Source of the DNA: Aselliscus stoliczkanus
Lineage: Eukaryota > Chordata > Mammalia > Chiroptera > Hipposideridae
Direction: 5' to 3'
NCBI GenBank assembly: GCA_033961575.1
Contig: CM066737.1
Location: 67,290,771 to 67,354,770, forward strand
Length of the DNA: 64,000 nucleotides
The notes beneath the pieces are model-generated. The model had not been told where the DNA came from. It saw only the letters and a list, made by a program, of their open reading frames with translations, and ran no database searches. Shown here piece after piece: positions 6,142-63,302 of this stretch. Positions within the stretch are counted from its first letter, which is position 1. The number at the start of each line of letters is the position of its first letter. Made by a program: the position numbers and the translations under genes.

Positions 6142-6300
6142 CCAAATCGTTCAATTTTTTTTTTTTTTAGAATGAAACTAGAACTGTCAGCTGTCAAATG
6201 ATATAGCAATAACAGAGATGCAAATGACTCTAGTAGTTCCAAAAATGAACTAGTGCCATCTGCTGTAAACATGCATCATGACTTTTCCAATAACCCAATA

Positions 6301-14602: not shown

Positions 14603-15525
14603 ATGAAGAAACAAAGAAACATGTCCAAAGTAAAAGACCAGAAGAAAACTCTAGAAATGGAACTAAATGAAATAGTGGTATCCAAACTTTCAGAGACAGA
14701 GTTTAGAACACTGATGATAAGAATGTTTAAGGAATTTACTGAGGACATAAAGAAGGATAGGGAAACCATAAAAAACAACCAGTTGGAACTAAAGAATACA
14801 ATAACTGAAATGAAGAACACACTCGAATGTATCACCAGTAGAATAGATGAAGCTGAGGGGCGGATCAGCGAATTAGAAGACTAAATAGCAGAAATCACCC
14901 AGCTGGAACAACAAAAAGAAACAAGAATAAAAAAGAATGAAAATAGTTTAAGAGACCTTTGGGACAACATGAAACACAACAACAGTCACATCATAGAAAT
15001 ACCAGAAGGAGAAGAGAAGAAACGGATTGAGAATGTATTTAAAGAAATAATGACTGAAAACTTCCCTACCCCGGTGAAGGAAACTGACATACAAGACCAG
15101 GATGTGCAGAGTTCCAAACAGGCGGAACCCAAACAGGTCCACACCAAGACACATCATAGTTAAAATGGCAAAGCTTAAATCAAAGACTGAATCCTAAACG
15201 CAGCAACAGAAAGACAGCAGTTTACATACAAAGGAACTCCTATAACACTAACAGCTGACTTTTCTACAGAAACTCTGCAGGCCAGAAGGGAGTGGCAGGA
15301 GATATTCAAAGTGACACAAAATAAAGGTTTACAACCAAGATTGCTCTACCCAGCATGGCTATCACTTAAAATTGAAGGAGAGATAAAGAGCTTCTCATAA
15401 AAGAATAAGCTTAAGGAGTTCATTAGTACCAAGCCAGAATTGCAGGAAATGTTAAAAGGGCTTTTTTCAACAGAAGAAAGGGGAAAACAAGCTAATCGAG
15501 GAAGACAAGAAATACAAATAACAAA
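14603..15525 (+). pseudogene. L1 ORF1 relic
   Basis: ORF1p is the L1 RNA-binding, trimer-forming chaperone. The start ATG at 14603 gives MKKQRNMSKVKDQKK, followed by a coiled-coil-like stretch (SKLSETEFRTL...RIDEAEGRISELED). A stop at 14882-14884 cuts it. The same frame resumes with the RNA-recognition part (IIEIPEGEEKKRIENVFKEI), then a frameshift near 15160 precedes TETLQARREWQEIFKV-like and EMLKGLFST sequence near 15270-15470. Compared with the open ORF1 at 31031-31906 the order is the same, so this is one broken gene. Confidence 0.88.
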
Positions 15526-18500
15526 ATGGCAATATATATGCACCTATCAGTAATCACTTTAAATGTGAATGGGCTAAATGCTCCAATCAAAAGACACAGA
15601 GTGGCTGAGTGGATAAGAAAACAGGACCCATTCATATGCTGTATACAAGACACTCATCTCAAATCAAAAGACACACACAGACTGAAAGTAAAGGGATGGA
15701 ATAAGATATCTCACTCAAATGTAAGTGAGAAAAAAGCTGGAGTAGCCATACCTATTTTGGTCAAAATAGACTTTAAAATGAAGACTGCAATAAAAGAAAA
15801 AGAAGGGCCCTACATAATACGAAAGGGATTGATTCAACAAGAGGAAGTAACCCTAGTAAACATCTATGCACCCAATATAGGAGCTCCTAAACATATATAA
15901 CAGATTTTGACAGACATAAAGACAGAGATCAACAGTAACAGTATCATAGTAGGGGACTTCCACAACACATTGTCACTAATGGACTGATCCTCTAGACAGA
16001 AAATGAACATGGACATAGTGGCCTTAAATGACACTTTAGACTAGCTGGATTTAATTGATATTTTTAGAGCATTTCACCCCAAAGGTACAGAATATACATT
16101 CTTCTCAAGTGCACATGGAACATTTTCCAAGATAGACCACATGTTAGGTCACAAAACAAGTCTCAACAAATTTAAGAAGGTTGAAATCCTATCAAGTGTC
16201 TTCTCTGAACACAATGCTATGAAACTAGAAATCAATTATGACAAGAAATCTGGAAAGCCTACAAACACATGGAGGCTAAATAACATGATACTAAATAGTG
16301 AGTGGGCCACAAATGAGATCAAGGAGGAAATCAAAAGATACCTCAAGGGAAACGAAAATGAAAACACCACGACCTAAAATTTCTGGGATGCAGCAAAAGC
16401 AGTCCTAAGAGAGAAGTTTATTGCAGTGCAGGCCTACTTAAGAAGAAAGAAAAATCTCAAATCAACAGACTATCTTTATACCTAAGGGAACTTGAAAAAG
16501 AACAGCAAAACAAGCCTAAAGGGAGTATAAGGAAGGAAATAATAAAGACCAGAGCAGAAATAAATGAAATAGAGAACAAAAAAAAAAACAATACAAAAGA
16601 TCAATGAAAGCAAGAGTTGGTTTTTTGGAAAGATAAACAAAATCGGCAAACCCTTAACCAGACTCACCAAGAAAAAGAGAGGACCCAAATTAATAAAATC
16701 AGAAATGAAAGAAGAGAACTGACAACAGATAAAACAGAAATGCAGAAAATTTTAAGAAAATAGTACAAGCAACTATATGCTAACAAATTCGACAATCTGG
16801 AAGAAATGAATAAATTTCTAGATGCATACAATCTACCAAGTCTGACCCCCAAAAACAGAAACTCTGAACAGACTGATTACTGCCAAGGAAATTGAATCAG
16901 TAATCAACAATCTTCCAACAAACAAAAGCCCTGGACCGGATGGCTACAGAGGTGAATTTTACAAAATATTCAAAAAAGAATTACTACCTATTCTCCTCAA
17001 ACTATTCCGAAAAATACAGAAGGAGGGAAGGCTCCCAAACTCTTTCTATGAAACCACCATCACCCTGATTCCTAAGTCAGACAAAGATATTACAAAACAG
17101 GAAAACTACAGGCCGATATCCCTAATGAACATAGATGCAAAAATTCTCAACAAAATACTAGCAAACCGAATTCAGCATCACATTAAAAAGATCATACACC
17201 ACGATCAAATGGGATTCATTCCTGGTATGCAAGGTTGGTTCAATATCCACAAAGCAATTAACGTAATACATCATGTTAACAAAATGAAAAATAAAAATCA
17301 TATGATCATATCAATACATGCAGAAAAAGCATTTGACAAAATCCAGCAGCCATTTATGATAAAAACTCTTAGCAAAGTGGGAATAGTGGGATCATATCTC
17401 AACATAATAAAGGCCATATATGATAAGCCCACAGCAAACATCGTACTCAATGCGGAAAGGCTAAAAGCTTTCCCCTTAAGATCAGGAGCAAGACAAGTCT
17501 GCCCACTTTCACCACTTCTATTTAACATAGTTCTGGAAGTTCTAGCCACAGCAATCAGACAAGAAAATGAAATAAAGGCATCCATATTGGAAAAGAGGAA
17601 ATAAAATTGTAATTATATGCAGATGACATGATATTGTATAAAGAGAATCCCAAAGACTCTACCAGAAAACTGCTAGAACTGATCAATGAATTTGGTAAGA
17701 TAGCAGGACACAAAATTAATACTCATAAATCAGTTGCATTTGTATACACCAATAATAAAGTATCAAAAGAAGAAATCAGGAAATCATTCCCTTTTACAAT
17801 TGTTTCAAAAACAATAAAATATCTAGGAATCAATTTAACTGAAGAAGTAAAAGACCTCTACTCAGAAAATTATGAGACACTGAAGAGAGAAATCAAAGAA
17901 GATATGAATAAATGGAAATACATACCATGTTCATGGATAGGAAGAATTAATATAGTTCAAATGTCAATACTACCTAAGGCAATATATAGATTCAATGTCA
18001 TTCCAATCAAATTACCAAGGACATTATTCTCAGAAATAGAACATAGAATCCTAAAATTTATATGGAACCACAAAAGACCACCACTAGCCATGGCAATCTT
18101 GAGAAATAAGAACAAAGTGGGAGGCATCACACTACCTGACACCAAAACATACTACAAGGTTACAGGAATCAAAACAGTATGGTACTGGCATAAAAACAGA
18201 CACATAGACCAATGAAACAGAATAGAGAGCCCAGGAATAAACCCATCCATATATGGTCATTTAATCTGTGACATTGGAAGCAAGAATTTACATTGGAGTA
18301 AAGATAGTCTATTTAATAAATGGTGCTGGGAAAATTGGACCGACACATGCAAAGAAATGAAAGTGAACCACCTACTTCCACCATATACAAGAACAAACTC
18401 CAAATGGATTAAAGACTTAAATGTAAGACCTGTACCATAAAACTCCTAGAAGAAATCATAAGGATTAAGTTTGCAGACAATAACCTGAATAATATTTTTA

Positions 18501-19346
18501 CTGATATATCCCCTTGGGCTAGGGAAATAAAAGAAAAAACAAACATATGGGATTACATCAAACTTGAGTTTTTTTCACAGCGAAGGAAATCATCAATAAA
18601 ATAAAAAGGTAGCCTACTGAATGGGAGAAGATATTTGCCAATGACATATCTGATAAGGGGTTAATATCTAAAATATATAAAACACTCATGCAACTCAACA
18701 CCAAAACATCAAACAACCCAATTAAAAAATGGGCAGAGGATATGAAGAGGCATTTCTCTAAAGAAGACATACAGATGGCCAACAGGCATATGAAAAAATG
18801 TTCAACCTCACTAATGATCAGAGAAATGCAAATAAAAACCACAATGAGATAGCACCTCACTCTGGTCAAAATGGCTATCATCAATAAATCAACAAACAAC
18901 AAGTGCTGGCAAGGTTGTGGAGAAAAGGGAACTCTGGTGCACTGTTGGTGAGACTACAGATTGGTGCAGCCATTATTGAAATCAGTGTGGATGTATCTCA
19001 AAAAACTGGAAATGGAACTACCATATGACCCAGCAATTACACCCTTTGGTATCTACCCAGAAGAATCCAAGACACTAATTCGAAAAAGTATATGCACCCC
19101 TATGTTTATTGCAGCACTGTTTACAATAGCCAAGACTTGGAAACAACCGAAATACACATTGGTAGATGACTAGATTAAGAAACTGTGGTACATTTATACA
19201 ATGGAGTATTACTCTGCTATAAAGAAGAATGAAATTGTACCATTTTCAACGATATGGATGGACCTAGAGAACATTATGCTAAGTGAAATAAGTCAGTTGA
19301 AGAAAGACAAATACCATATGATCTCACTTATCTGTGGAATCTGGAA
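15526..19346 (+). pseudogene. L1 ORF2 relic (endonuclease and reverse transcriptase)
   Basis: The apurinic-type endonuclease starts SVITLNVNGLNAPIKRHR, with IQDTHL at the position usually IQETH, so the catalytic Glu is Asp here. A stop at 15898-15900 follows NIGAPKHI. The later endonuclease motif is present with altered residues ([10 protein letters not shown] where other copies read [10 protein letters not shown]). The reverse transcriptase follows, with [12 protein letters not shown] and the YADD active site (17616-17627) reached after a frameshift, then [20 protein letters not shown] and the cysteine-rich C-terminus near 18900-18960. Several stops and frameshifts make it inactive. Confidence 0.9.
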
Positions 19347-19844
19347 AACTAAATGAACAAGCAAAGTAAACAGAAACAGTCTCATAAATATATAGGGAAA
19401 AACTGATGGTTGCTAGTTGGGAAGGGGCTGCGGATGAGGGAGAAGGGGGAAGGGATTAGACAGCATACATAGGTAACTACAATATTGCCACAGGGATATG
19501 AAAGACAGTTCGGGGAATATAACAATGTAAATATTTTGTGGGGTGTCAGATGGTCACATGTCTTTTTAGGGAGACTACTTCATGGATGGAGTAGAGGCTT
19601 GATCACTGCACTGTATATCTGAAACTGATGTTGTGTAATATTGTATGCCAACTGTAACTGAATATATAGATTGTCATGGGATGTAGAGTATACTGTGGAA
19701 GGGAGTGAAAGGAATTGTAATAGATATGTATGATATGGGGGAGAGGAGTGGGGTGACGAATTGCGGGAGGGCTTTGTCACTTTGAGGGGTAAAAAGTATA
19801 ACCATTGCACTGTGTTTTACACCTGAAACTAATTTTTAAAAAAA

Positions 19845-19997
19845 TTTTTATTTCACAATAAAAGAATTAAAAAAAAAATGAATCAAGAATATAAGATGTT
19901 CCATCAGTGGCATGACTTAGTGGCTTCCCAAATTGTACTGTTTGCAGATATTTCAGTTTTACTAAAATTTATGAAGTTACTGAAAAAAAGAAAAAAA
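19845..19997 (+). other. Probable 3'-transduced segments after an L1
   Basis: The ordinary L1 end (ACACCTGAAACTAAT, shared with the copy at 26626-31915) is followed by an A run. Next comes a 24-bp segment with AATAAA (19857-19862), then ten As, then about 104 bp unrelated to L1 (19879-19982), then a second A-rich tail (19983-19997), then the target duplication. This layout is what read-through transcription past an L1 poly(A) signal produces. The last segment has no canonical AATAAA, which weakens the case slightly. Confidence 0.75.
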
Positions 19998-26401: not shown

Positions 26402-27151
26402 TGGTATGGAGACTTTTCAATTTCTAGTATTTTAAATGTTTTATTATGCATTTTTCATGACTAAGGGTGTGTGTATTTTAATGTGCTTGTTTGCCACCCA
26501 TACATCTTTTTTTTTTCCTTAAAATACCTGATCACATTGTTTTGACCATTGTAAATTAGGTTGATTTTTTTACTACTAGGTTTTGAGAGGTTTTTGTGTT
26601 TTTTTTAAATTTGGACTTTATTCCCTTTTTTTATTTTATTTTTATTTTATTTTATTTTATTTTATTTTTAATTAGTTTCAGGTGTACAACACAGTGCAAT
26701 AGTTATACATTTTACCCCTCAAAGTGACAACCCCCCACCCCCAATACACCACCCCACTCCCCCCCATATCATATATCTATTACTCTTCCTCTGACTCTCT
26801 TCCACAGTATAATCCACATCCCGTGACTATCTATATATATTCAATTACAGTAGGTATACCACCTCCACTTTAGTAATACAGTGCAGTGATCAAACCTCTA
26901 CTCCATCCATGAAATGATCTCCCTAACAAGACCTATGATCATCTGACATTCCACAGAATATTTACAACATTATTAATTATATTCCCCAAACTGTTTTTCC
27001 TATCCCAGTAGCAATATTGTAGTTGCCTATTTTTGCTGTCTAATCCCTTCCCCTTCTCCCTCATCCCCATCCCCCTCCCAACTAGCAACCCTGATTTTTC
27101 CTCTATATCTATGAGACAGTTTCTGTTTACTTTGCTCATTCATACAGTTTT

Positions 27152-30100
27152 TCATATTCCACATATAAGTGAGATCATATGGTATTTGTCCTTCTCTGAC
27201 TGACTTATTTCACTCAACATTATAGTCTCTAGGTCCATCCATATCATTGCAAATGGCACGATTTCATTCTTCTTTATAGCGGAGTAATACTCCATTGTAT
27301 AAATATACCACAGTTTCTTAATCCAGTCATCTACTGACAGGCATTTTGGTTGTTTCCAAGTCTTAGCTATTGTAAATTGTGCTGCTATGAACATCGGGGT
27401 GCATAACTTTTTTTGAATAAGTGTCTTGGTTTTTTCAGGATAAATACCTAGGAGTGGAATTGCTGGGTCAAACGGTAGCTCTATTTCCAGTTCTTTGAGA
27501 TACCTCCATACAGACTTCCATAGTGGCTGCACCAATCTGCAGTCCCACCAACAGTGCAGCAGGGTCCCCTTTTCCCCACAGCCCCGCCAGCACTTGTTGT
27601 TTGTTGATTTGTTGATGATAGCCATTCTGACTGGAGTGAGGTGGTATCTCATGGTGGTTTTTATTTGCATTTCCCTAATGACCAGTGAGGTTGAACTTTT
27701 TTCATATGACTGTTGGCCATCTGTATGTCCTCTTTAGAGAAATGTCTCTTCATATCTTCTGCCCATTTTTTAATTGGGTTGTTTGTTTTTTTGGTGTTGA
27801 GTTTCATGAGTGTTTTATAAATTTTGGATATTAACCCCTTATCAGATATATCGTTGGCAAATATATTCTCCCATTCAGTAGGCTTCCTTTTTGTTTTATT
27901 AATGGTTTCCTTTGTTGTGAAAAAACTTTTAAGTCTGATATAATCCCATATGTTCATTTTTTCTTTTACTTCCCTTGCCCGTAGGGATGTATCAGTAAAA
28001 ATATTGCTCCGGGTAATGTCTGCAAATGTACTCCCTATATTTTCCTTTAGTATTTTTATGGTTTCAGGTCTTACATTTAAGTCTTTAATCCATTTTGAAT
28101 TTGTTCTTGTATAAGGCGTAAGGAGATGATCCAGTTTCATTTTTTTGCATGTGTCAGTCCAATTTTCCCAGCACCATTTATTGAATAGATTATCTTTACT
28201 CCAGTGTAAATTCTTGCTTCCCTTGCCATAGATTAACTGTCCGTAAATGCTTGGATTTATTTCTGGGCTCTCTGTTCTGTTCCACTGATCGATGTGCCTG
28301 TTTTTATGCCAATACCAAACTGTCTTGATTACTGTGGCCTTGTAGTAGGTTTTGATGTCTGTTAGCGTGATTCCCCCCGACTTTGTTTTTATTCCTCAGA
28401 ATTGCCGAGGCTATTCTGGGTCTTTTATGATTCCATATAAACTTTAGGATTATATTTTCTATTTCTGTGAAAAATGCCCTTGGTAGTTTGATAGGAATTG
28501 CATTGAATCTATATATTGCTTTGGGCAGTATGGACATTTTAACTATATTAATTCTTCCTATCCATGAGCATGGTAGGTGTTTCCATTTATTTGTATCTTC
28601 TATGATTTCTTTCTTCAGTGTCTTATAATTTTCTGAGTACAGATCTTTCACTTCTTTGGTTAAATTTATTCCTAGGTATTTTATAGTTCTTGACGCAATT
28701 GTAAATGGGACAGTTTTCTTAATTTCTCTTTCCATTAGTTTATTATTGGTATATGCAAATGCCACAGATTTCTGAACATTGATTTTATATCCTGCTACTT
28801 TACTGAATTCGTTTATCAGTTCCAATAGTTTTTTGATGGAGTCTTTGGGGTTCTCTATATACAGTATCATGTCATCTGCATATAATGACAATTTTACTTC
28901 TTCATTGCCAATTTGGATGCCTTTTATTTCTTTTTGTTGTCTGATTGCTGTGGCTAGAACTTCCAGCACTATGTTGAATAAAAGAGGAGAAAGTGGACAG
29001 CCTTGTCTTGTTCCTGATCTTAAGGGGAATGGTTTTAGCTTTTCCCCATTGAGTATGATGTTAGCTGTAGGTTTATCATATATGGCTTTTATTATGTTGA
29101 GATATGATCCCTGTATTCCCACTTTGCTAAGGGTTTTTAACATAAATGGCTGTTGGATTTTGTCAAATGCTTTTTCTGCATCTATTGAAATGACCATGTG
29201 ATCTTTATCCTTCATTTTGTTGATGTGGTGTATCACATTAATTGATTTACGGATGTTGAACCAGCCTTGCGCACTAGGGATGAATCCCACTTGATCATGA
29301 TGTATGATCTTCTTAATATATTGCTGAATTCTGTTTGCTAATATTTTATTGAGAATTTTTGCATCTATATTCATCAGGGAGATTGGCCTGTAGTTTTCCT
29401 TTTTTGTGATGTCTTTATCTGGTTTTGGAATCAGGGTGATAGTGGCTTCATAAAAAGAGTTTGGGAGCCTTCCCTCCTTCTGGATTTTTTGGAATAGTTT
29501 GAGAAGAATAGGTGATAGTTCTTTTTTGAATGTTTGATAAAATTCACTTGTGAAGCTGTCTGGTCCAGGGCTTTTGTTTTTTGGGAGCTTGTCAATTACT
29601 GATTCAATTTCCTTGGTAGTAATCAGGGTATTTAGATTTTCTGTTTCTTCTTGCGTTAGCTTTGGAAGGTTGTATGCTTCTAGAAAATTATCCATTTCTT
29701 CCAGATTGTCAAATTTGTTGGCATATAGTTGCTCATAGTAATTTCTTAGAATTTTTTGTATTTCTGTGATGTCTGTAGTCATTTCCCCTCTTTCATTCCT
29801 GATTTTGCTAATTTGAGTCCTCTCTCTTTTTTTTTTTGATGAGCCTGGCTAGAGGTTTGTCAATTTTGTTTATCTTCTCAAGAAACCAGCTCTTGGTTTC
29901 ATTGATCTTTTGAATTGTTTTTCTGTTCTCTGTATTGTTTATTTCTGCTCTGGTCTTTATTATCTCCTTTCTTGTACTTCCCTTGGGCCTCTTTTGCTGT
30001 TCTTTTTCCAGTTCCCTTAGGTGTAAGGATAACCTGTTGATTTGAGATTTTTCTTCCTTCTTTAGGTAGGCTTGCACTGCTATAAACTCCCCTCTTAGGA

Positions 30101-30982
30101 CTGCTTTCTCAGCATCCCAGAGATTTTGGGTCGTGGTGTTTTCATTTTCGTTTGTCTCGAGGTATCTTTTGATTTCCTCCTTGATCTCATTTGTGACCCA
30201 CTCACTATTTAATAGCATATTGTTTAGCCTCCATTTATTTGTCAGCTTCCCGGATTTCTTCTTATAATTGATTTCTAGTTTCATAGCATTGTGGTCAGAG
30301 AATACAGTTGAAATGATTTCAATCTTCTTAAATTTATTGAGACTTGTTTTGTGGCCTAACATGTGGTCTATCTTAGAAAATGTTCCATGTGCACTTGAAA
30401 AGAACGTATATTCTGTAGCTTTGGGATGAAATGCTCTGAAAATGTCTGTTAAATCCAGCTGGTCTAATGTGTCATTTAAGGTCGCTGTTTCCACATTGAT
30501 TTTCTGTCTGGAGGATCTGTCCATTAGTGACAGCGGGGTGTTGAAGTCCCCTACTATGATAGTGTTACTGTTGATCTCTGTCTTTATGTCTGACAATATC
30601 TGTTTTATATATTTAGGGGCTCCTATGTTAGGTGCATAGATGTTTACTAGAGTTATGTCCTCTTGTTGGATCGATCCCTTCATTACTATGAAGTGTCCTT
30701 CTTTGTCCTTTGTTATATTCTTCAATTTAAAGTCCATTTTATCTGATATAAGTATCGCTACTCCAGCTTTTTTCTCAGTACCATTTGCATGAAATATTTT
30801 ACTCCATCCCTTTACTTTCAGCCTGTATGAGTCTTTGGATCTGAGGTGAGTCTCTTGTATACAGCATATACTGGGGTCTTGCTTTCTTATCCATTCAGCC
30901 ACCCTATGTTATGTCTTTTTATTGGAGCATTTAATCCATTTACATTTAATGTGATTATTGATAGGTGTGTATTTATTGCCAT
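27152..30982 (-). pseudogene. L1 ORF2, nearly complete but frameshifted
   Basis: ORF2p joins an endonuclease to a reverse transcriptase. The start is the ATG at 30982-30980 (MAINTHLSIITLNVNGLNAP). A 5-bp duplication (ACATA ACATA) near 30910 shifts the frame. Next (29808-30902) the endonuclease retains [26 protein letters not shown] and [11 protein letters not shown]. An indel in the T run near 29830 leads to the 492-residue piece 28304-29782 with the reverse transcriptase: [33 protein letters not shown] and YADD (28871-28882). A G-run indel near 28375 and one near 27665 follow. The C-terminus (27152-27670) keeps [18 protein letters not shown]. About four frameshifts, all active-site motifs still readable. 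Confidence 0.92.
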
Positions 30983-31030
30983 TTTGTTATTTGTGTTCGT
31001 AGTCTTTCATAGGTTGTTTTTCTCTTCTAC

Positions 31031-31906
31031 TTAAAGAAGCCCTTTTAGCATTTCCTGCAAAGCTGGCTTGGTGGTAATGAATTCCCTTAACTTATTTTTT
31101 TCTGCAAAGCTCCTTATCTCGCCTTTGATTTTAAATGATAACCTTGCTGGATACAGCAATCTTGGTTGTAGGCCTTTATTTTTCATCACTTTGAAAACCT
31201 CCTGCCACTCTCTTCTGGCCTGCAAAGTTTCTGTAGAAAAGTCAGCTGATAATCTTATGGGGGTACCCTTGTAAGTAACTTGCTGCCTTTCCCTTGCTGC
31301 TTTAAGGATTCTGTCTTTGTCCTTAACCCTTGCCATTTTCACTATAATGTGTCTTGGAGTGGGCCTGTTTGGAATCATCCTGTTTGGAACTCTCTGCACT
31401 TCCTGGGCTTGTATTTCAATGTCCTTTGCCATGTTAGGGAAGTTTTCAGACATTATTACTTCAAATATATTCTCAATCCCTTGCTCCCTCTCTTCTCCTT
31501 CTGGTACTCCAATGATCCTTAGGTTATTGCGTCTGATGTTGTCCCCCAGCTCTCTTAAACTATTTTCCATGTTTTTCATTCTTTTTTCTTTTTGTTGTTC
31601 CGCATGGGTGATCTCTGCTATTTTGTCTTCTAAGTCACTGATTCGATTTTCTGCTTCATCCAGTCTGCTAGTGATTGCATCAAGTTTGTTATTTAATTCA
31701 GTAATTGTGTTCTTAAGTTCTAGCTGGTTGCTTTTCATGATTTCTCTATCCTTCTTTATATTTTCATTAATTTCCTTGAACATTCTAATAATCAGTGTTC
31801 TGAACTCTGTCTCCGAGAGGTTGGTTACCTCTATTTCCTCTATTTCCACTGATTCAGGAAGTTTCTTCTGTTCTTTTATTTGTGTTATGTTTCTTTGTCT
31901 CCCCAT
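31031..31906 (-). CDS. L1 ORF1 protein, uninterrupted frame
   Basis: A 291-residue open frame for L1 ORF1p, the RNA-binding chaperone that coats L1 RNA in cytoplasmic particles. Residues about 40-115 are predicted coiled coil (heptad-like, with EAENRISDLEDKIAE). The RNA-recognition region begins NNLRIIGVPEGEE (about 127-139). The conserved RPTPRHIIVKM sits at 181-191. The C-terminal domain has LSADFSTETLQARREW and KLREFITTKPALQEMLKGLL. The start ATG is the first in frame and aligns with the start at 14603. The stop falls right after KGLL, whereas the 15xxx copy continues about 20 codons, so the end may be slightly early. Expression is unlikely, as the element's 5' UTR is missing. Confidence 0.82.
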   Translation of the reverse strand: MGRQRNITQIKEQKKLPESVEIEEIEVTNLSETEFRTLIIRMFKEINENIKKDREIMKSNQLELKNTITELNNKLDAITSRLDEAENRISDLEDKIAEITHAEQQKEKRMKNMENSLRELGDNIRRNNLRIIGVPEGEEREQGIENIFEVIMSENFPNMAKDIEIQAQEVQRVPNRMIPNRPTPRHIIVKMARVKDKDRILKAARERQQVTYKGTPIRLSADFSTETLQARREWQEVFKVMKNKGLQPRLLYPARLSFKIKGEIRSFAEKNKLREFITTKPALQEMLKGLL

Positions 31907-33808
31907 TCTGGCTTACTTTGAGAGTTTTTTTATACATTGTGTATACAAGTCCTTTATCGCATGATATTTGAAGATAAACTCTTTCCATGGCTTGTCTTTT
32001 CATTCTCTTAAGAGTGTCTTTTTAAAAGCTGAAAGTCTTAATTTTTATGAAGTACAATTAATCTTTTTATAGTGTTGCAGTTAAGAAATGATTGTATAAC
32101 TTCAGGTCAGAAAGATCTCACATGTTTTCTTCTGGAAGGCTTATAGTTTTAAGCTTTACATCTAAGTTGATAATCTCTTTTGAGTTGATCTTTGTATATT
32201 GATATACGGTGTGGGATATATTTTGAAGTTCATTCTTCTATATGTAGATATCCAAATATTCCAGTACCAATGCATTGGCAAGCCAATAATAGCTCCACTG
32301 AATTGTTATTGTACTTTTGGTAAAAATCAGTTGTTTATATATATATGTGAGTTTATTACTGGATTCTTGATTCTATTCTATGATCTATTTGTCTATTTTC
32401 CCCCAACACCACACTGTATTGATTACTGTAGCATTATTAAGTCTTGAAGTCTGGCATTGTAAATTTTCAACATTCTTCTTTCTCAAAGTTGCTTATGCTG
32501 TTGTAGTTTTTTAGCATTCTCATATGAATTTCAGAATCAGCTTGTCAATTTCTACAAAAAAAAAGCTATATAATTTTGATTTGGATTTGAGATAAACTAT
32601 AAATCTTTTGGGGGAAAGTTGACATCTTAATAACGTTGAGAATTTCAATCAATGATTGGTATTTGGTCATAGCTGTCTAGGATATAGAAATGCAATCGGT
32701 AGATTACATCACAGAAATGGCAGCATGAGGAGTGCTTCTTGAAATATCCTCTGGAATTTACAACAAATTGAACAGCTATAATTCAATAAAGGACTCCCTG
32801 CATGGCACACAGCATGCCTGAGAGTCCTGCAAATTGAAGCACCTAATGGTGTGCAACTTGGGTGAGCAGGGGGGAGAGAAACGGGGAAGTGCAGAGACAC
32901 AGGCTGCGCGCGCCACAGGATGCAGACCAGAGCTCTGAGCTCCCTGCATTCTGGAGCTACTGCAGTCGCGGGAGAGGAAAGAATTTGGACTGCTACCCTT
33001 ATAACCCACAGTCCCACCTGTGGGATCAGCATATACCATAGCTGAACTCAACATTCATGGCAGAGACCTTGGAGCAAAGACTGAGGGAAGAAGGATGAGA
33101 ATAGTGGTTTAAGCCCTCACTACCAAGCAGAAGACAGAAGACATAGGCATGGAGCCTGAGCAACTCCCCCCTTCTCCCAGAGCTAACTCACTCCAATGAT
33201 GCCAGTGCTAGAATCAGACTCCAGAAGAAACAGCAACGATGTCAGATTAAAGAACAGAATATTTACAGCTCTGAGAACTGCAGCCCCAGAGCAAAAGACT
33301 CACAGTGCAACTAAATCCAACGAAAGGCAATGAACTGTAGGGGCAAGATAACTGTGAGCTGATAGTTGCCATTGCTCAGAGCCACCTCTCATGACCCGTC
33401 CTGCCCCTGCCCACACCTATCAGGGCGAATCCCTGCAGGGGCTACCAGAGCCAGGGAGACACACAGGCTCTGCATTGGGCTGCTGGGGAGTACTGGGACT
33501 TCAGAAGCTCAGAATCTGTTACCTTTCACATCCTCCCATGGAGGCAGTGCCATGAGACCCAGGTGATCTGCTCAGAGGAGAAGCCCATCTTTCAAACCCC
33601 CCTCCCCCATCACGTGAGAAGCTGGAGCAATGTAAGAGAAAATATAACGCTGCAGAGTGAGAGAGAATAAAAGGTTACAGTGGGAAAGAAAATAAAACAT
33701 TCCACCAACAACTAGTGGAAAGCAAAAGAAAGACCTCTTCCTATCAACTTGTTGCAGAACCCACTCCAGTAGATGCCCAGGAAGAGAAATAATAATCCAT
33801 TAATTGCC

Positions 33809-42829: not shown

Positions 42830-45679
42830 TTGATTTATTTTAACACATTGATACCTGAAAGGGATAGCATGGTTTGCTATTATCAGTTACTAACACTGTA
42901 GTATTACTTTCTCTGAGAAGCAGTTGATTATAGAAGGAAGTGATGGGGGCAGGTTAGTTTTGATAGGGAAGTGGAGCTCAGGAACATTGTGGAGCAATGA
43001 ATGAAACTAATATAAGATGGGCAACCAGTGTACAAGATGAGGACAGGTGTTAGATGAATGGATGCATTGGAGGCAGTGATAAGCTTTGTCTGCTGAATCC
43101 AGGTGCTATTAAAATATAAGTCTTGGTTGTGCTGACTGCGGCATTTGCCATAGATGTAAGGCTACCAGGACACCGTTACAATCTGCCTTCTCAATAGCAC
43201 AGGGAAGAAATTGAAATCGTATAAGAAAAATTGACAATTTTTTTCTCACATTTCACTGAAAACATCATTTAAGATCAAATTTATTTCTTAAATTGGGATG
43301 ATGAATTTTCTAAAATTTATTTGTCAAAGTCTCATTTTCCTTGATGTTAGAGTTATTTCATGTAGTAACTATCTTAATATAATTTTGGCTGCAACTCATG
43401 GTTAATGCTTTTTGAAATCTGCATACACTTTGTGAAATAAATAAGAGTTCTTGGCTATTATCATTTCCTTTCTGTTTTTATTTATTTGATTTAAGATCAG
43501 GAATGTGTGGTGGGAGACAGACCAAGAGTCATTTCTTTTTGAATTCTTAGCCATACAATGTCACCAAGTTGGTGAGTGGACAAGACCATCCCTAAAGACT
43601 TTGGTTGCTCAGTTTCTATCCTTCCCAATTGGATATTCTTTAGTTTCAAAGAATAGCAGTATGTTAATAATGGCACTCAAGGTGATGGTGATAAAAAATA
43701 TTATGTGCTACACTGTTACCTTTTCTATATTAAGAACTTAACTCAGCAATAAACTGTATATAAACATTACTCAGGATAGTCTATCTTCCTGTTACCTGAA
43801 GGCATTGAAAGAAAAATAGAAGAATGTCACCGAGTTATTCCAATAACTCTGCAGAGTGCTATAAAGCTCTAAAGCTATAAATGAAGGTAAATTTATCTGA
43901 CCTATAAGTCAGATTTTTCACTCTATTGACACTATAGAAAGGACTGCCAAGTTGATTTATAAGTACTGTGGACACCACAAAATTAATTTACTGCCTTCCA
44001 GCAACAGGTTGTCAGGTTTCCACAGAAAACCATGTGTACTGGGGTGGCTTCACATATGACTTGAGTGCTCTAGTCAACAGGGCAGCACAGACATCGGTGA
44101 CTTTAACACAGCTTGTCAAAACCATTAGCTATACTAGAAATGTTACATTCTTTCTCATCAAAAAAAGTATAGGAGGGTGTGTTTTTTTAAAAATTACTTC
44201 TACCTTTTATAAACCAGGATATTCCCTCCCTATGCTAGTCCCACCTTAAACCATCAGCTTAAAGGAGAAATACACTTATCACTGGTCTCAAGGTAGTTTA
44301 AATAAAGAAATACAGAATGTATGAGCTAGGATTAGATCATGACCTAAAACTACTCTCTGGAATGTTGAATGAATTCTATTTTTACCATAATTAATTGGTC
44401 CCAGATTGGCCAGAAGTATGTTATTATAGCTCAGAAAAATTGAAAAGATATATCAAATAATACCATTTCATTTCTATTATTGAAATGAAGAGAAATCCAC
44501 ATATTTACAAAAAATGGATTTGACACTTTTAGAAGCAGATGTGATGAGGGGGTCTTAGGGTATGATAATAAACCTCCATTCCAGAGGCACACATCTGTGT
44601 TCCTAGTAAAATACAAGCATCTCAAAGTTTAGGAGAATGGGCTAGGCTCCAAGATAAACACAGAACATTCTTCTAAGGGGCTCCCCAGACCACCAGTGAA
44701 GAGTCATGTATGAAAGCCAGGGTTCAAGAATAGATCTGTGGATTTATTGCTTCCTTATTCATGGTGTGAGGTAAATGACAAATCCTACAATTACCCCTCT
44801 TTCTGGTCCTCCAATAGTTTGAATACCAGACTATCTAAATAGTATAACAGCAAGGGGAAAAAGAAATCACAGCCTGACAACTTTCTGATTAGTTTTATAG
44901 TGTATCATACTTTTATGATGTAGGAAGCCTTATTCTTGTTTTAAAACAAAAGCTTTAATATTTTCTTTTCACATAGCATAGGGATAGCATTAAACAGAAA
45001 GAAATAGGCTTTTTTACCCTCTGAAACCTTTATGAAGTATTTGTTTATTACAACGCCCTTGCTTGTTAATTGGTTAGTTTCTTGCTTAAGCAAGCAAATA
45101 ACCTAAAAAAGATAGTGTCATTACTCAGCAACTAAATGAAGTAGCTGTAAACGTATCATCAATTTCAAGTTAATAGTCTTTCCCAGTGGTTCCAATGAGA
45201 AGACAATATGGAACTGAAGCAGGAAACACAAGCTATCCGACAGATCTAAAGGACATAATACCACTAAAGGAGAACTGAAACTTGTGTTAAATTAAAATAG
45301 CATTAACAAGCATGCTTTCATCATTTCAGTTTTACTATAGCTCTTTGATTTGAAGCTTCTTTTTATAGCTCTGTCATTCTTTTGCCCTTAAAATGACAAT
45401 ATTCTCCTTGAAATAGATTTTATTAGTGTAGCTCATAGTATTGTTATTAATAGTATTGTGGTAGCAATTGAATTAGTATTGCTACCTTGGAAACAAGTCA
45501 TAACTAATTTTCTTTGTCAAGAACTATTTTTGGAGTTACCTGTTTATATAATGTGCTATATATGTTTGTACTGGGATGAGTAGAAACTTGATCAAATTAA
45601 AGTAAATAACATACAAAGACTTCATAATGCCCTAAAACTATACTCATGTCTCCATTATTAAGCCCGGTTTTTCATATAT
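42830..45679. other. Unique DNA
   Basis: No gene, SINE or L1 recognised over about 2.8 kb. Frames of 78 codons (43505-43741) and 93 codons (43968-44249) have no recognised motif and no supporting context. CTTGCTTAAGCAAG near 45090 is a small palindrome. Confidence 0.5.
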
Positions 45680-45830
45680 TCTTTGCATGTACTTAACACT
45701 TCTCAGCCTCAGTTTTGCCATCTGTAAAATATTGTTAAAATAACTGTCTTCTCTGGTTATTTTGAAGTATATGAAATAATAAATGGAAAGCACATTGTAA
45801 ATACCAAGTAAATGTTTATTTTTGTTTTTC
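45680..45830 (+). repeat. MIR SINE fragment
   Basis: CTTAACACTTCTCAGCCTCA, GTTTTGCCATCTGTAAAATA and GAAAGCACATTGTAAATACC, then AAGTAAATGTTTATT, follow the MIR consensus order (TTAACCTCTCTGTGCCTCAG, TTTCCTCATCTGTAAAATGG, AAAGCGCTTAGAACAGTGCC). Confidence 0.82.
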
Positions 45831-46064
45831 CTGTTACAGTTGTGTTTTTCCTCATACATATTTGATTCAGCCACCTGTCCATTTGGAGAATATTGCACAT
45901 AATTATAGAAAATTTTGGTAGTAATTACCATGGATCAAGTTAGTTATACAGACATAATCAAACAATACAGTGAATGTTTAAATTTTTAAAAAATTATAGT
46001 AAAAGACACATTGCCATTAATCCCGCTCAAAATACTCCCCCTCATTTCAAGCACACTTATCCCA

Positions 46065-46360
46065 TCATTGTTGATACTTTCTGAAACAGTTCTGATAGTC
46101 CTCTTTAGTGAGTGTCTTTAGTTGCACTGTTGTGGTTGCCTTGAGTTCCTGAATCATTTTGACTTTGGGGGAGAGCCAGAAGTCCCATGGTGCCAGTTCC
46201 AGTAAATAAGGTGGATGAGGACACACTGTAATGTTTTTATTTGACAGAAATTGTCGTATACCAGAAGCAACATGTGACATGGTACCTTTCCATTGTGATC
46301 ACAAAATATGGTGAATGCTGCTGCTGAGTGCCATCCTACAGAAAGGCAGGGATCTTCCAT
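46065..46360 (-). pseudogene. Mariner transposase C-terminus, left arm
   Basis: Reads PHPPYLLELAPWDFWLSPKV then TVQLKTLTKEDYQNCFRK, the region around the third catalytic Asp (WDF where active relatives read CDF or SDF). The upstream second-Asp motif is degenerate (CDHNGKVPCHM in another frame). Only about 90 codons remain. Confidence 0.82.
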
Positions 46361-46439
46361 ACAGAAAGCAGCTCACTGAACCTTAGTAATAGTGTGTGAC
46401 AAGTTTCCACTTGTTTAGTACAGGTAGTCGGATGTGAGC

Positions 46440-46737
46440 TACAGTTGAGAGAAGGTGTGTTTTAAAGGGTGCTGTAAATCATCCTCCATCATGACAACAC
46501 TCCGTGTCACACATTGCTTCTGGTATATGGCAATTTCTGTCAGTTAAAAACATTGCAGTGTGTCCTCATCCATGTTATTCACTGTATCTGGCACCGTGCG
46601 ATTTCTGGCTCTTCCCCAAAGTCAAAATGATTCAAGACATCAAAGCAGCCACGACAGTACAACTAAAGATACTCATGAAAGAGGACTTACAGAACTGCTT
46701 TAGAAAGTGGCAAGAATTATGGGATAAGTGTATTTGA
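46440..46737 (+). pseudogene. Mariner transposase C-terminus, right arm
   Basis: Contains HHDNTPCHTLLL (second Asp, about 46489-46524), then in the adjacent frame SHIASGIWQFLSVKNIAVCP, APCDFWLFPKVKM (third Asp), and the C-terminal FRKWQELWDKCI followed by a stop. Better preserved than the left arm, but lacking the N-terminal half. Confidence 0.85.
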
Positions 46738-47144
46738 AGCGAGGGGGAGTATTTTGAGGGAGATTAATGGCAATGTGTCATTTATGGTAATAATATTTTT
46801 TATTTAAACATTCATTGGATTGTTTGATCACACCTTGTATTTAAGGTAATACTGAATATTAAGTACTCTTTATTTCTAATAAATATGTATTTTAAGCACA
46901 TGTGTTAAGTACATAAAATCAAATTATTGTGGCATAAAACTGACTAAATTAGCTATAAATGAATAGCAATACAAAGTTATACAGAAATTAATTAAATTTA
47001 AATGGCTAATATCAACAAACTATGTATGTTTCTGCTCAAAAGCTTAAAAATATAGAAAATATATTGTATACTACATGTATAACTATGTAAAGACTATATG
47101 TGAACATAGTCAAAAATTGAAACATTAAAAATATGATGTTTGAG

Positions 47145-47554
47145 GGCCGGCCAAGTGGCACATTGGTTAAGAGCTGGCTTGGGATTACAGCAGCCCCGAT
47201 TTGGATCCCACATGTGAGGGCCAGTGACACTGCCCTGTACCGCTAAGATGGTGAACAACAGCTCGATCTGGAGCTGGGCTGCGTGAGTCCCGGTGATGGT
47301 GTAGGCTGCAGCCCCTGCTACAATGGGCTGCCATAGGCTACAGTGAGTGGCAGGCAGCCAGCGTGAGCTGCCAAGAGCTGCTGTGATCAGTCATTCAGAG
47401 CCCTATGACCAATGTGCCTCCGCCAGGACGAGCACAATGATAATACCAACATGGGCAGGTGAAGCAACGTCTTCCACAACTAGACTGAAGAACAAAAGCA
47501 CAGCAAATTATCTGTTCCCCTCCCCCAATTCCCCAATAAAAATTAAAAAAATAA
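47145..47554 (+). mobile_element. Long tRNA-derived SINE inside left arm
   Basis: GGCCGGCCAAGTGGCACATT, CTAAGATGGTGAACAACAGC, AATACCAACATGGGCAGGTG and CCCCAATAAAAATTAAAAAA. Flanked by a perfect 12-bp duplication ATGATGTTTGAG (47133-47144 and 47555-47566). The other arm has only the single, uninterrupted target (rc of about 50236-50243 reads AAATGATGTTTGAA). Confidence 0.95.
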
Positions 47555-47762
47555 ATGATGTTTGAGTAATGGGTATAACAAGATTGTAAGCAATTTTTTC
47601 CTTTCACCCTAATATCCTCATATATTTTTATAATTAGCTATATACAATGAATCCTAATGAGTTTAAAAACATGTACTGTCATTTACTTACTAGTGATATG
47701 AGCAAGCCCAAATGATTTACAGGTTTTATATTCTCCATATGATCAATTTGATTGAAAAAAAG

Positions 47763-47773
47763 GGTGTGTGTGT

Positions 47774-47805
<32 letters not shown>

Positions 47806-47818
47806 ATGAGAGAGAAAG
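47763..47818. repeat. (GT)n microsatellite in left arm
   Basis: A GT run with one CT interruption followed by a GA-rich stretch. It corresponds to the CT/CA compound repeat in the right arm (49939-50028). Confidence 0.93.
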
Positions 47819-48048
47819 AGAAAATTAGAAAGAAATATCTTTTTTAGATCAGCCCACTTCTTTTCACATTACCAATTCTATAAGAGGAACAAGGGACAGA
47901 GAAAGTAAATTTCAGAGGGATTCTATAGACAGGTGTAAAATTCAGAGGTATGAGAGCCAGAACTTTTGTCTACTACAATGATTGTTCATAATATTTAATT
48001 TTTCTCACTAGCCAAATACCATAGACATGTGCTGCATTTGTGTACTGT

Positions 48049-48364
48049 CCATAAAACTGAACAGTATGAGAGCAGGTAGAATGGAATGTTTTCTTCTTGT
48101 TTCTATATATACACAATACCATATCACATAGTTATTTTTGTAAACAACAAAAATCCATTAACTGTGGTAACAATTATGGTGGTGCATGGTACCTTTAATT
48201 AAATTACCAAACATACATGAACATAGATTAGAACTATACCATGATGCTTATTTAGCAAAATGAGAAAAAAAAATGAAGAATATTTTAAGAAAGCTCAATG
48301 AAAGTTACAATTCAATAGTAACATTTCAAAATGTATTCTTTATCCACTAGCACACAAATAAAAA
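48049..48364. other. Spacer between inverted arms, first part
   Basis: No gene or repeat recognised. Confidence 0.5.
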
Positions 48365-48378
48365 AAAATCTTGCTCTA

Positions 48379-48833
48379 GGGCCAGCTGAGTGGCTCAGTT
48401 GGTTAAGAGTTGGCTTGATAGCATGAGCTCTGAGCAGCAGGGCCGCTGGTTCGGTTCCCACATGGGCCAGTGACACTGTACCCTCTACAGCTAAGATGGT
48501 GAACAACAGCTCTACCTGGAGCTGGGTTGCTGTGAGTGGCTGGCGATGGGATAGACTACAGCTCCTGCTGTAATGAGCTGCTGTGAGCTATAGTGAGTGG
48601 CCAGCAGCCAGTGATAGCTGCCACAAGCTGCCATGAGTGGCCATCCAATGGCCAGCGACCAACTGCCCCTGCCAGGAAGAGCACAATGATCATAATACCA
48701 ACATGGGCCAGTGAAGTGACGTCCTCCACAACTAGAGGACAAAAGGACAGCAACTTGTCTGTTCCCCTTCCCTGATTCCCCAGTGCTCTTCTCCTCCTCC
48801 AATTCCCCAATAAAATTTTTAAAAAAATAAAAG
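48379..48833 (+). mobile_element. Long tRNA-derived SINE in the spacer
   Basis: GGGCCAGCTGAGTGGCTCAG, CTAAGATGGTGAACAACAGC, AATACCAACATGGGCCAGTG, CAATTCCCCAATAAAATTTTT. The flanking duplication is AAAATCTTGCTCTA (48365-48378 and 48834-48847), perfect over 14 bp. A repeat-unit-like series of GCTGYGAGYGGC motifs fills the middle. Confidence 0.95.
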
Positions 48834-48889
48834 AAAATCTTGCTCTACTAATCAGTATTATTTTGCATTTACAAATTTCAACTTATCAT

Positions 48890-49085
48890 TGATAATAATA
48901 GAAGCTCTCATTTATCTGGTGCTCATAGCATTCCAGGCTTTGTGTTAAGCACTTTACATGTAAATTCTCATTTCTTTTTTTGACAACCTTATCTGACATA
49001 GTTATAATTATCTGCATTTAACATAGAAAATACGTGAGGTACATAAATCTTAATTCTGCAGTCATGGTCTCATTCCTAGTAAGTA
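48890..49085 (+). repeat. MIR SINE fragment
   Basis: GTTAAGCACTTTACATGTAA, ATTCTCATTTC, ATTATCTGCATTTAACATAG and AATTCTGCAGTCATGGTCTC follow the MIR order (TTAAGCGCTTTACATG, TTCTCATTTAATCC, ATTATCCCCATTTTACAG). Confidence 0.83.
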
Positions 49086-49089
49086 GACA

Positions 49090-49731
49090 AAATGGGTCTT
49101 AAATTTCAACCCAAATTATTTGATTATTTTTTCTTCTTTTTTAAATTACTTAATTCTATGCTTTATTCTTTCACTGAATTTTTTAAATTCCATGTTAAAA
49201 GTCATCATGCATTGTTTTTTGTTTATCTTAAACAATCAAAATTTAAGATGACAATTTTGCAGGATGGTTTTAGGATATATATTGTAGACAAGCATAGATA
49301 ATAAATGACCAACTGTTAGAAGAGTGTAGACTCACCACCCTCTCTCAGGATTATCAGGAACCCCACTGAAAGCTCTACATCACCAAACATGGAAACAATA
49401 ATGGAAATTTTAGGTGGTTATCTAATTTACCTAAATATCTCCATAAGACATTTTGATGGTTATAGAATCTTTCAGTTTACCTTACAGCTTGGTCCACATA
49501 ACAATTAGGCTGCTTTGAAAATGTGTGCAAAGTTAGACTACTTTTAGAGAGAATTTACATTCTTTTAATAAAGTCGACAATGCTGACTTTATTCTATGAG
49601 GAAAAGTTGTTATATATTATAAATGATAGCTAGTTTCATTGAATAGGACTTTTCATGTTACAGTGCCTATGAAGTCTTTAAATGACTATGGGTTTCTTGG
49701 TCTTTGAAGATGTTAATGTTTTCCCTAGCTC
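49090..49731. other. Spacer between inverted arms, last part
   Basis: No gene or repeat recognised. A 69-codon frame at 49092-49301 has no motif. Confidence 0.5.
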
Positions 49732-50403
49732 CAGTACACAAATGCAGCACGTGTCTATGGTAATTGGCTAGTGAGAAAAATTAAATATGAACAATCATTG
49801 TAGTAGACAAAAGTCGTGGCTCACATACCTCTGAATTTTACACTTGTCTGTAGAATTCCTCTGAAATTTACTTTCCCTGTCCCCTGTTCCTGTTATAGAA
49901 CTGGTAATGTGAAAGGAAGTGGGCTGATCTAAAAAAGATCTTTCTCTCTCTCTCTATTTCTATCTCTCTCTCTCTCTGTCTCTCTGTCTCTCTCTCTCTC
50001 ACACACACACACATACACACACACACAGATACACTTTTTTCAATTAAATTGACTATATGGAGAATATATGACCTGTAAATCATTTGGGCGTACTCATATC
50101 ACTAGTAAATAAATGGCATTACATGTTTTAAAACTCATTGTGATTTGTTGTACATAGTTAATTATAAAAATATATGAAGATATTAGGATGAAAGAAAAAA
50201 AATACTTACAATCTTGTTATACCAACTTTTCAAACATCATTTTTTTAATGTTCCAGTTTTTGGCTATGTTTACATATAGAATTTACATAATTGTATGCAT
50301 AGTATACAATATATTTTCTATTTTTTAAGCTTTTGTAATGGAAACACACATAGTTTGTTGATATATAGCCATTTAAATTTAATTAATGTCTGTATAAATT
50401 TGG
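49732..50403 (-). repeat. Inverted duplication, right arm (empty SINE site)
   Basis: Inverted copy of 46972-48048, about 672 bp. CCAGTACACAAATGCAGCAC at its inner edge mirrors GTGCTGCATTTGTGTACTG at the left arm's inner edge. The region CAAACATCATTTTTTTAATG is the uninterrupted counterpart of the SINE target in the left arm. The estimated identity by eye is high apart from the microsatellites. Confidence 0.9.
49939..50028. repeat. (CT)n(CA)n compound microsatellite
   Basis: CT-rich then CA-rich simple repeat, the right-arm counterpart of the GT/GA repeat at 47763-47818. The CT part has expanded relative to the left arm. Confidence 0.93.
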
Positions 50404-50404
50404 A

Positions 50405-51262
50405 AAAGTGACAATTACAGAATTCTTTGCCTTTCCCTTGGACTGCAATTCTTTTCACTTTATTCTAGAAGAGCTCATTTTTCTATAATTATAGAGATAA
50501 TGAAAGACTTACTGAGATTTTAGGTAATCAGACATTAAATCAACCCACTTCTATGCCAAGGTGCTTTCAAATAATAAAGGTTCTGACCTGAACCCATGAA
50601 GAGAATGTCAAACACTAATCTCATGCCAGTGCAAGAGTAAAAAATATTCCATTAGAGAAACGTAAGGATTTATGCAAATAAAGCTCAACTACCCAATCTC
50701 TGTATTTCAAAAGATGAACTTTGAGTCTGGCTATGCAATTACAGAGGGAAGGAATTTCTGAGCAAAACTGCTTCCTACTGACTATTCCTATTTTTGTCTT
50801 TGCATTTGCATGTGATCTTTGATTTCTGGATTGCACAGGCAAGACTTTTGTAGTTCACAACTGTCAAAAAGCATGGCGAAATCAAGTTTTGCTATAAAAA
50901 AGGGAATTCTCAGGAATATGGCAAATTCTAAATCAAGAAATAAAAACAAATCAGTTTTGAAATGTTGATAAGCAATAAACACACAAGGAAGACATTTACA
51001 ACCAGATGGTATATTCTGAGAGAACTATTTTGTTCAGAGAGGGTTTTATGCAAAATGCGATGCAAAATTGTCCTAAATTTTTCTTAGGGCCAAAGAAATA
51101 TGACATTAGAAACATAATTTTATGCTATGGATATAAGCATAAAATCAGCTACAAGAGGTCAAAAATAAGTTAATGATTATCTTAACGTTTTCTGAGAAAT
51201 TGCACTTCTGTTACCACTACTACCACTACTATTAATATATAACATTTAATAAAAATTATTGT
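50405..51262. other. Unique DNA
   Basis: No gene or repeat recognised. Minus-strand frames of 73 and 64 codons (50621-50982) have no motif. Confidence 0.5.
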
Positions 51263-51264
51263 GT

Positions 51265-51480
51265 TGAAGTCTTTTATGTCTGTTATTATATTTAATGCTA
51301 ACAGGAACCAGAGAAGGTAGTTTCCATTACCAATTTGGGAATATTAAGTTTTAGTGAAGCTATGTAACTTGCTACATTTCAAATAGTTGTAAATGGAGTA
51401 CCTAGGATCCAACCTCAAGTACTTCTAATGCTAAATGTGTGAGCTTTTCTTCTATACTAAGCTGCTTTTTATACTGAAGC
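51265..51480 (+). repeat. MIR SINE fragment
   Basis: TTATTATATTTAATGCTAAC, AGGAACCAGAGAAGGTAGT, AGCTATGTAACTTGCTACAT and ACCTAGGATCCAACC match the MIR 3' half (TAACTTGCCCAAGGTCAC, GAGCTGGGATTCGAACC). Confidence 0.75.
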
Positions 51481-51484
51481 ATTA

Positions 51485-52396
51485 GAAGAAGGAGAAAAGA
51501 TTTGATGGAATAGCTTAGATTTGCTATGGATTTTAAATCTTTGTTCAAAATACTTAAAAAATGTTTATTCATTGCTTTTGCAACCAGCCAATCATTCCAA
51601 CTGAGAAATAATTAAAGTATTTTACAGAACACTGGACAATATTTTCAGGAATTGTCACCTTTTTGACCATGCTCCATATTTTGTGAACTGAGGAACAGTA
51701 CTAGAAAAAGAACTATTCTTTTAACGTACAAAAATGTCCATATTTGTATATCCTTGAATTTGAGGCTCTTCAAAGAAATTAGTAGATGAAGAAATCTGAG
51801 GCAGGAATATGGAAATATACTTTATAGATTAAAAGAGGATGACTAAGGAACATTTGAAGACAAACTATTTTTGTTTATTCATATGTTTTCAAACAAATTT
51901 TAATCCTGGGTGGGAACAATTTCAAAGCAAATGATAACATATTATTGCCAATTAACATTTCTTCACTCTTATCCCTATCATATTTCCACTCTCTAACTCC
52001 AACATTTAAAACCTAACAGTTTTACATGTGACTTTCTCCTTTACCATACTTGACTACCATTGTGTTCGACAGTATATGTGTTTGCCTGTCTTTGAGTCAG
52101 AAATATTTTAATTCCATTTTTGGCACTGTAGATTTGAATTGAGCTTTTCAATGTAGAAAGGCATAGTGAATAAATGCCTATCAGAGATTGGTTCTTTAGT
52201 GACTACACGGATTCGTATTTCAAAGAGGAAGTTCCTTTGTTTAGCAGAACCAGGAGCAGAATTTCCAAAATCTACCAATTGTAAATCCCTTAAAACTTGA
52301 AATACAAAATTAAGTTTGCTTTTCTCAAAATTCTTTCTGATATCAGTCTCAGAGAAGTTTTGACTCTAGTAAATTATTTGTAAAGAGTCCCATATT
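51485..52396. other. Unique DNA
   Basis: No gene or repeat recognised. Confidence 0.5.
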
Positions 52397-63004: not shown

Positions 63005-63208
63005 CATAGGTTTCAAGTGTACAGTTCTATTACACATCATCTATATATTGCATTGTATGTTCACCACCCAGTCAGTTCTCCGTCCATCACCATATACTTG
63101 ATCCCCTTTTCTCTCTTCTACCATCCCTTCTCCCCCTTTACACTCTGAAACCACTAATCTGTTGTCTGTGTCTATGAGTTTTTGCGTCTTTGTTTGTCTT
63201 GATCTTGA
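63005..63208 (-). mobile_element. Antisense L1 3' UTR fragment
   Basis: The given strand reads ATAGGTTTCAAGTGTACAGT, AGTTCTCCGTCCATCACCATA and TGTCTGTGTCTATGAGTTTT, the complement of the L1 3' end at 39060-39250. No poly-T tail is left. Confidence 0.87.
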
Positions 63209-63235
63209 ACCTCTATCCTCCAGAACTTTGAGGGA

Positions 63236-63302
63236 AAAAAAATTCCTATTGTTTAAGGCACCTAGTCCATGGTATTTTGTTATAGCAACCCTAGCAGCAG
63301 GC
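63236..63302 (+). mobile_element. MLT1-like LTR 3' end fragment
   Basis: TTGTTTAAGGCACCTAGTCC and ATGGTATTTTGTTATAGCAA resemble the MLT1 LTR 3' end (TTGTTTAAGCCACCCAGTCT, ATGGTATTTTGTTATAGCAG). Only about 65 bp. Confidence 0.55.

What the first reader, a model, noticed from the sequence alone, without database searches (positions are those of the whole stretch)
46972..50403. Large inverted duplication dated by a SINE present in one arm only
Arms 46972-48048 and 49732-50403 are inverted copies around a 1.7-kb spacer. The left arm has a 410-bp SINE with a perfect 12-bp duplication. The right arm shows the same target once, without SINE. So the order is inverted duplication first, then SINE insertion. 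It is not obviously a transposon: no terminal repeats or target duplications bound it. Its outer left edge starts only about 135 bp from a palindromic mariner, which may mark a fragile site or a foldback replication event.
Basis: seen in the sequence. Interest (0 to 1): 0.82.

Follow-up and report, generated by a model that had tools for sequence, protein, structure and literature searches.

The report
Old inverted duplication split by SINE
A stretch of mammal-like DNA was copied backwards into a spot 1.7 kb away, one copy later received a small jumping element, and a sister segment on another chromosome seems to show the spot before the copy arrived; it is an ordinary kind of mutation, unusually well documented here.

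Summary
Left arm 46972-48047 and right arm 49732-50402 are inverted copies, 512 of 567 aligned bases identical outside the SINE and microsatellite. The left arm holds a 410-bp SINE with a perfect 12-bp target duplication; the right arm shows the target once.

Each unique half of the arm was found twice in the 2.19-Gb genome, both times here, so it is no transposon. The new evidence is a paralogous segment on contig C7. It matches window 48179-51087 in order but lacks the right arm and the spacer SINE. It reads as the site before insertion: the right arm is the inserted, inverted copy of the left.

At that site the arm begins with a 5-bp microhomology (CAGTA, mildly beyond chance) and ends with a 2-bp one; a few to about 20 bp of target are gone. 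That fits template switching (FoSTeS/MMBIR) or a templated patch at a break, for an inverted-duplication class known to be common in humans.

The order duplication, then SINE is supported, but the SINE is not measurably younger. The nearby palindromic mariner has palindromic relatives throughout the genome and gives no evidence of a fragile site. Ordinary mechanism, good example.

The parts
46972..48047 (+). left arm, the source copy (unique DNA plus a later SINE)
   Evidence: two copies of each unique arm half in the genome; source by polarity from C7
47133..47144 (+). first copy of the SINE target duplication, ATGATGTTTGAG
47145..47554 (+). 410-bp SINE in the left arm only
47555..47566 (+). 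second copy of the SINE target duplication
47755..47835 (+). GT/GA microsatellite, left arm (bounds set by eye; differs in length and make-up between the arms)
48048..49731 (.). spacer of 1684 bp; from 48179 to 49716, its SINE apart, it has a paralog on C7
48379..48835 (+). second SINE, in the spacer, absent from the C7 paralog, which shows its target once
49732..50402 (-). right arm: inserted inverted copy of the left arm without the SINE
   Evidence: absent from C7
50230..50240 (-). unfilled SINE target in the right arm
49732..49736 (+). CAGTA, 5-bp microhomology shared by the donor edge and the C7 target site
50403..51087 (.). right flank, continues in C7 about where the spacer stops
45949..46837 (.). 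palindromic mariner between two TA (ends set by eye); has palindromic relatives across the genome; not part of the event

Best explanation
A stretch of otherwise single-copy host DNA (left arm, then without SINE) was copied once, in inverted orientation, into a site 1.7 kb downstream. Shown: two arms and no further copies found; C7 carries the same surroundings without the right arm, so the right arm is most simply the insertion; the right arm begins with CAGTA, which both the donor edge and the C7 target hold, and ends at a shared TG (by eye); a few to about 20 bp of target are replaced. Inferred: DNA synthesis stalled or broke at the target, switched to the opposite strand at the inner edge of the left arm through CAGTA, copied about 670 bp backwards, and switched back next to where it had left (FoSTeS/MMBIR or a templated patch in break repair). 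Later a SINE entered the left arm. At the recalled mammalian neutral rate of about 2.2-2.5e-9 per site per year the arm divergence gives very roughly 20 million years.
For: Arms at 90.3% over full length with sharp edges. For each unique arm half the first look gave 2 candidates, both in this locus. C7 segment L066 3078-4841 matches window 48179-48378, 48834-49716 and 50401-51087 in order, with the right arm and spacer SINE missing. The genome searches with spacer pieces and right flank found no other place but C7 and one 40-bp piece on C11. CAGTA occurs in the 30-bp C7 stretch that I took at the gap; 4.2% of shuffles of that stretch hold it, and 1.9% of all arm 5-mers occur in the stretch. 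Passages of PMC12350158: 277 inverted duplications, the commonest class among 733 inversions outside mobile-element events, median 284 bp, most with 1-15 bp microhomology, read there as replicative.
Against: The first microhomology is only mildly beyond chance; the longer imperfect match at the second junction is not (P 0.42), nor clearly the wider context of the first (P 0.078). One search found 0 bp at every junction, under the assumption that no target was lost. A few bases beside the first junction do not align with C7 cleanly. The polarity rests on a single paralog; no related species could be searched. Arm divergence (51 of 561 non-CpG) and C7-C11 divergence (179 of 1670) do not differ (P 0.30), so the C7 split is not shown to be older than the arms. 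The SINE is, if anything, too diverged for its place in the order (P 0.017-0.13).
Confidence: 0.78

Rival explanations
1. The right arm is the original and the left arm the inserted copy; the C7 paralog lost its right arm by deletion.
For: C7 keeps a CAGTA, and its next bases weakly resemble the outer end of the arm, as a deletion between short repeats would leave.
Against: Both ends of an independent deletion would have to fall within about 10 bp of both edges of the inverted duplication (inference). The resemblance at the outer end is no better than chance (P 0.42).
Confidence: 0.1
2. One complex replicative event: the spacer and right flank came to this chromosome from C7 and the inverted arm was picked up from the neighbouring host sequence in the same round of template switching. 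(This shares the copying direction with the best explanation, so the odds overlap.)
For: Arm divergence and C7-C11 divergence are not distinguishable (P 0.30); the C7 homology starts 131 bp from the source arm.
Against: Direction of the C7-C11 duplication is unknown; the spacer alone is somewhat more diverged than the arms (122 of 1006 against 51 of 561, P 0.08).
Confidence: 0.1
3. A fold-back (hairpin) event as in large human inverted duplications, with a chromosome break and intrastrand pairing, perhaps provoked by the palindromic mariner.
For: Single-copy spacer of 1.7 kb and a few bp of inverted microhomology, within the ranges seen in PMC3907307. The mariner is older than the duplication, so it was there at the time.
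Against: That model ends in a telomere, translocation or ring; here the chromosome continues into the same flank as C7. The mariner lies outside the arms, and the inserted copy lies 2.9 kb away from it.
Confidence: 0.05
4. Both arms are insertions of an interspersed element.
For: Both copies have the same two ends.
Against: Two copies found in 2.19 Gb, no target duplications, no terminal inverted repeats seen by eye.
Confidence: 0.02

Closest known systems
Polymorphic inverted duplications of human genomes (PMC12350158, passages seen)
   Same: a few hundred bp, inverted, microhomology of 1-15 bp at most junctions, read as replicative
   Different: here seen in one assembly, old (about 10% diverged), later split by a SINE, in a non-human mammal-like genome
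Fold-back inverted duplications with a single-copy spacer (PMC3907307, passages and the first part of the discussion seen)
   Same: spacer of kb size; short inverted microhomology at the spacer-inversion junction
   Different: no terminal deletion, telomere or translocation; arm under 1 kb; flank continues
ODIRA / inverted triplications (PMC10766186, passages seen)
   Same: template switch between strands at short inverted repeats
   Different: no triplication and no palindromic junction seen here

Membership tests
FoSTeS/MMBIR-type local inverted duplication | inverted copy of nearby single-copy DNA | tested here: met
FoSTeS/MMBIR-type local inverted duplication | short microhomology, no long homology, at both junctions | tested here: inconclusive
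   5 bp and 2 bp against the C7 site; the first is beyond chance at 0.02-0.04, the second is not. One search gave 0 bp at every junction, but it assumed that no target bases were lost
FoSTeS/MMBIR-type local inverted duplication | formed during DNA replication | not testable with these tools
   history only; inferred
Fold-back inverted duplication (PMC3907307) | single-copy spacer between the copies | tested here: met
   1684 bp, no second copy within the locus
Fold-back inverted duplication (PMC3907307) | distal end is a telomere, translocation or ring with terminal deletion | tested here: not met
   right flank continues as in C7
Transposable element (foldback or MITE type) | multiple copies with common ends | tested here: not met
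   two copies of each unique half found
Transposable element (foldback or MITE type) | target site duplication | tested here: not met

The most novel reading that the evidence does not exclude
A single complex template-switching event interleaved pieces of two chromosomes: spacer from C7, inverted arm from the neighbouring C11 sequence, then C7 again a few bases further on, leaving a fossil of chromoanasynthesis-like repair that can be read base by base.
Probability: 0.1. Interest if true: 0.5.

Novelty: new member of a known kind. Interest (0 to 1): 0.27.

Why it matters
With two arms alone one cannot tell which is the copy. Here a paralog on another chromosome supplies the empty site, so the direction of copying, the junctions and the loss of target can be read from one genome. 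It is a worked example of how such repeats arise and of how a SINE can order the events, and a caution that the SINE's own divergence need not give a younger date.

Tried and rejected
Microhomology at the junctions assuming no target loss gave 0 bp under both polarities; the C7 site later showed that target bases had been lost. Clustering of mismatches as a sign of gene conversion: none (P 0.76, 0.52 and 0.23 for three measures); inner part 6.7% different against 9.4 and 13.3% further out, P 0.08. SINE age: among four long copies in the window the left-arm SINE has the most private changes, 28 of 360 columns against 21, 17 and 14. Against the majority of 29 other copies it differs at 45 of 410 sites, 29 of 368 outside CpG; 19 after dropping the 10 that three or more copies share; 16-21 expected if as old as the duplication, P(29 or more) 0.017-0.13 by the assumed base-composition bias. 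Those 29 are the best of 40 scored among 8653 candidates, chosen for likeness to this SINE, which biases their own spread low. Mariner age was first taken from an alignment in which 10 of 19 rows held half of the element (46 of 618); redone with full rows it is 69 of 831, the 19 others averaging 7.8%, not corrected for base composition. Rfam scan of 44000-52000 at gathering scores: 0 matches. Paper searches that gave nothing usable: 0 papers; listings only. The direction of the C7-C11 duplication was not resolved.

Full report
Observation. The two arms are real, inverted and full length. Left 46972-48047 aligns with the reverse complement of 49732-50402. Outside the SINE and the microsatellite 512 of 567 aligned bases agree (55 differences, 37 transitions, 18 transversions; K2P 0.105; 8 gap events). 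Similarity ends at all four edges; the best local matches between the flanks are short and weak. The SINE (47145-47554) has a perfect 12-bp duplication; the right arm holds 11 of the 12 target bases once and no SINE.

Not a mobile element. Searching the assembly (2,187,126,926 bases, 146 contigs; the window is C11:67290771-67354770) with the right arm scored 40 of 637 candidates; besides the arms, all matches listed lie within query 197-309, the microsatellite. The parts on either side of it, 50050-50403 and 49732-49935, each had two candidates, both in this locus. The tool warns that no match does not prove rarity. There are no target duplications around the block or either arm.

Which arm is the copy. 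The spacer part 48840-49731 has one long match elsewhere, C7:81421262-81422113, 83% (a third match is 40 bp on C11). The right flank 50404-51087 matches C7:81422151-81422840, 88%, and 48179-48378 matches C7:81421077-81421269, 84%. In the fetched C7 stretch (L066) these lie in order and close together, without the right arm and without the spacer SINE, whose target is present once. With simple repeats masked, the 7.5 kb of L066 match the window only in these three pieces and in one 101-base piece at 63197-63296 (70%). So C7 holds a small interchromosomal duplicate that shows the site as it would be before the right arm came. The opposite reading, that C7 lost the arm, needs a deletion whose two ends coincide with the edges of the inverted duplication.

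Junctions. BLAST leaves 34 bp of C7 between the last spacer and first flank homology. In the 30-bp stretch that I took there lies CAGTA, with which the copied arm begins; 4.2% of shuffles of the stretch hold it, and 1.9% of arm 5-mers occur in the stretch. At the other end donor and target share TG by eye; the longer imperfect match there is not beyond chance (P 0.42), and the wider context of the first junction only weakly (P 0.078). Depending on the alignment a few to about 20 bp of target are gone. This is what template switching or a templated patch leaves. It is supportive, not proof.

Ages. Non-CpG divergence: arms 51 of 561; C7 against C11, spacer 122 of 1006 and flank 57 of 664. Arms against all C7-C11 sites P 0.30, against spacer alone P 0.08; flank and spacer differ from each other (P 0.02), which I cannot explain. 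The SINE differs from the majority of 29 other copies at 29 of 368 non-CpG sites, of which 10 are shared by at least three copies; 16-21 would be expected had it been there since the duplication. So the SINE gives an order, through the empty target in the copy, but no younger date. The mariner beside the block differs at 69 of 831 non-CpG sites from the majority of 19 other copies, which themselves average 7.8%. That is more than one arm has gathered (51 of 1122 lineage sites, P 0.0008), so it was there before the duplication. All 40 places scored for it, the best of 6882 candidates and this one included, give one long match and two inverted half matches each, 120 rows in all; its palindromic form is therefore a family trait and was not made here. 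Whether the remaining candidates are palindromic was not seen.

Known kinds. In passages of PMC12350158 inverted duplications are the commonest class among 733 human inversions outside mobile-element events (277, median 284 bp), mostly with 1-15 bp microhomology. Passages and the first part of the discussion of PMC3907307 describe fold-back duplications with spacers of 766-70,466 bp in 21 sequenced junctions and 2-8 bp inverted microhomology in 13 of them, but with terminal deletions, which are not met here. PMC10766186 (passages) gives ODIRA; PMC8755829 (passages) discusses template switching for microinversions; of PMC10164571 the abstract and outline were seen.

Verdict. A true, old, local inverted duplication of otherwise single-copy DNA, left to right, most likely by template switching, followed by a SINE. 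A known kind with unusually complete evidence.

Noticed in passing
window 45949-46837: Palindromic mariner made of two inverted 3' halves (arms 84% complementary; C-terminal transposase remnants by eye, recalled likeness). 40 of 40 scored places in the genome, this one included, are palindromic and match over most of the length; 6882 candidates of the first look. An amplified palindromic mariner in a mammal-like genome may deserve its own look.
   Followed up: partly
window 48179-51087 and L066 3078-4841 (C7:81421077-81422840): Interchromosomal duplication found at two places, about 1.8 kb on C7, with sharp ends and no target duplication or poly-A seen by eye; direction unknown.
   Followed up: partly
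window 50404-51087: The right flank is less diverged from C7 than the spacer (57 of 664 against 122 of 1006 non-CpG sites, P 0.02); constraint or conversion not tested.
   Followed up: no
window 14596-19882 and 26630-31913: Two elements that look like L1 (recalled likeness) in inverted orientation at 84% identity over 5.3 kb; the second keeps a stretch of 514 codons without a stop.
   Followed up: no
window 47370-47434: 17 of the 45 differences of the left-arm SINE from the majority of its relatives fall within 65 bp (P 0.005).
   Followed up: no
window 5605-6150: Open stretch of 181 codons on the minus strand that looks like a different mariner transposase (recalled likeness; one search lists the frame).
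   Followed up: no
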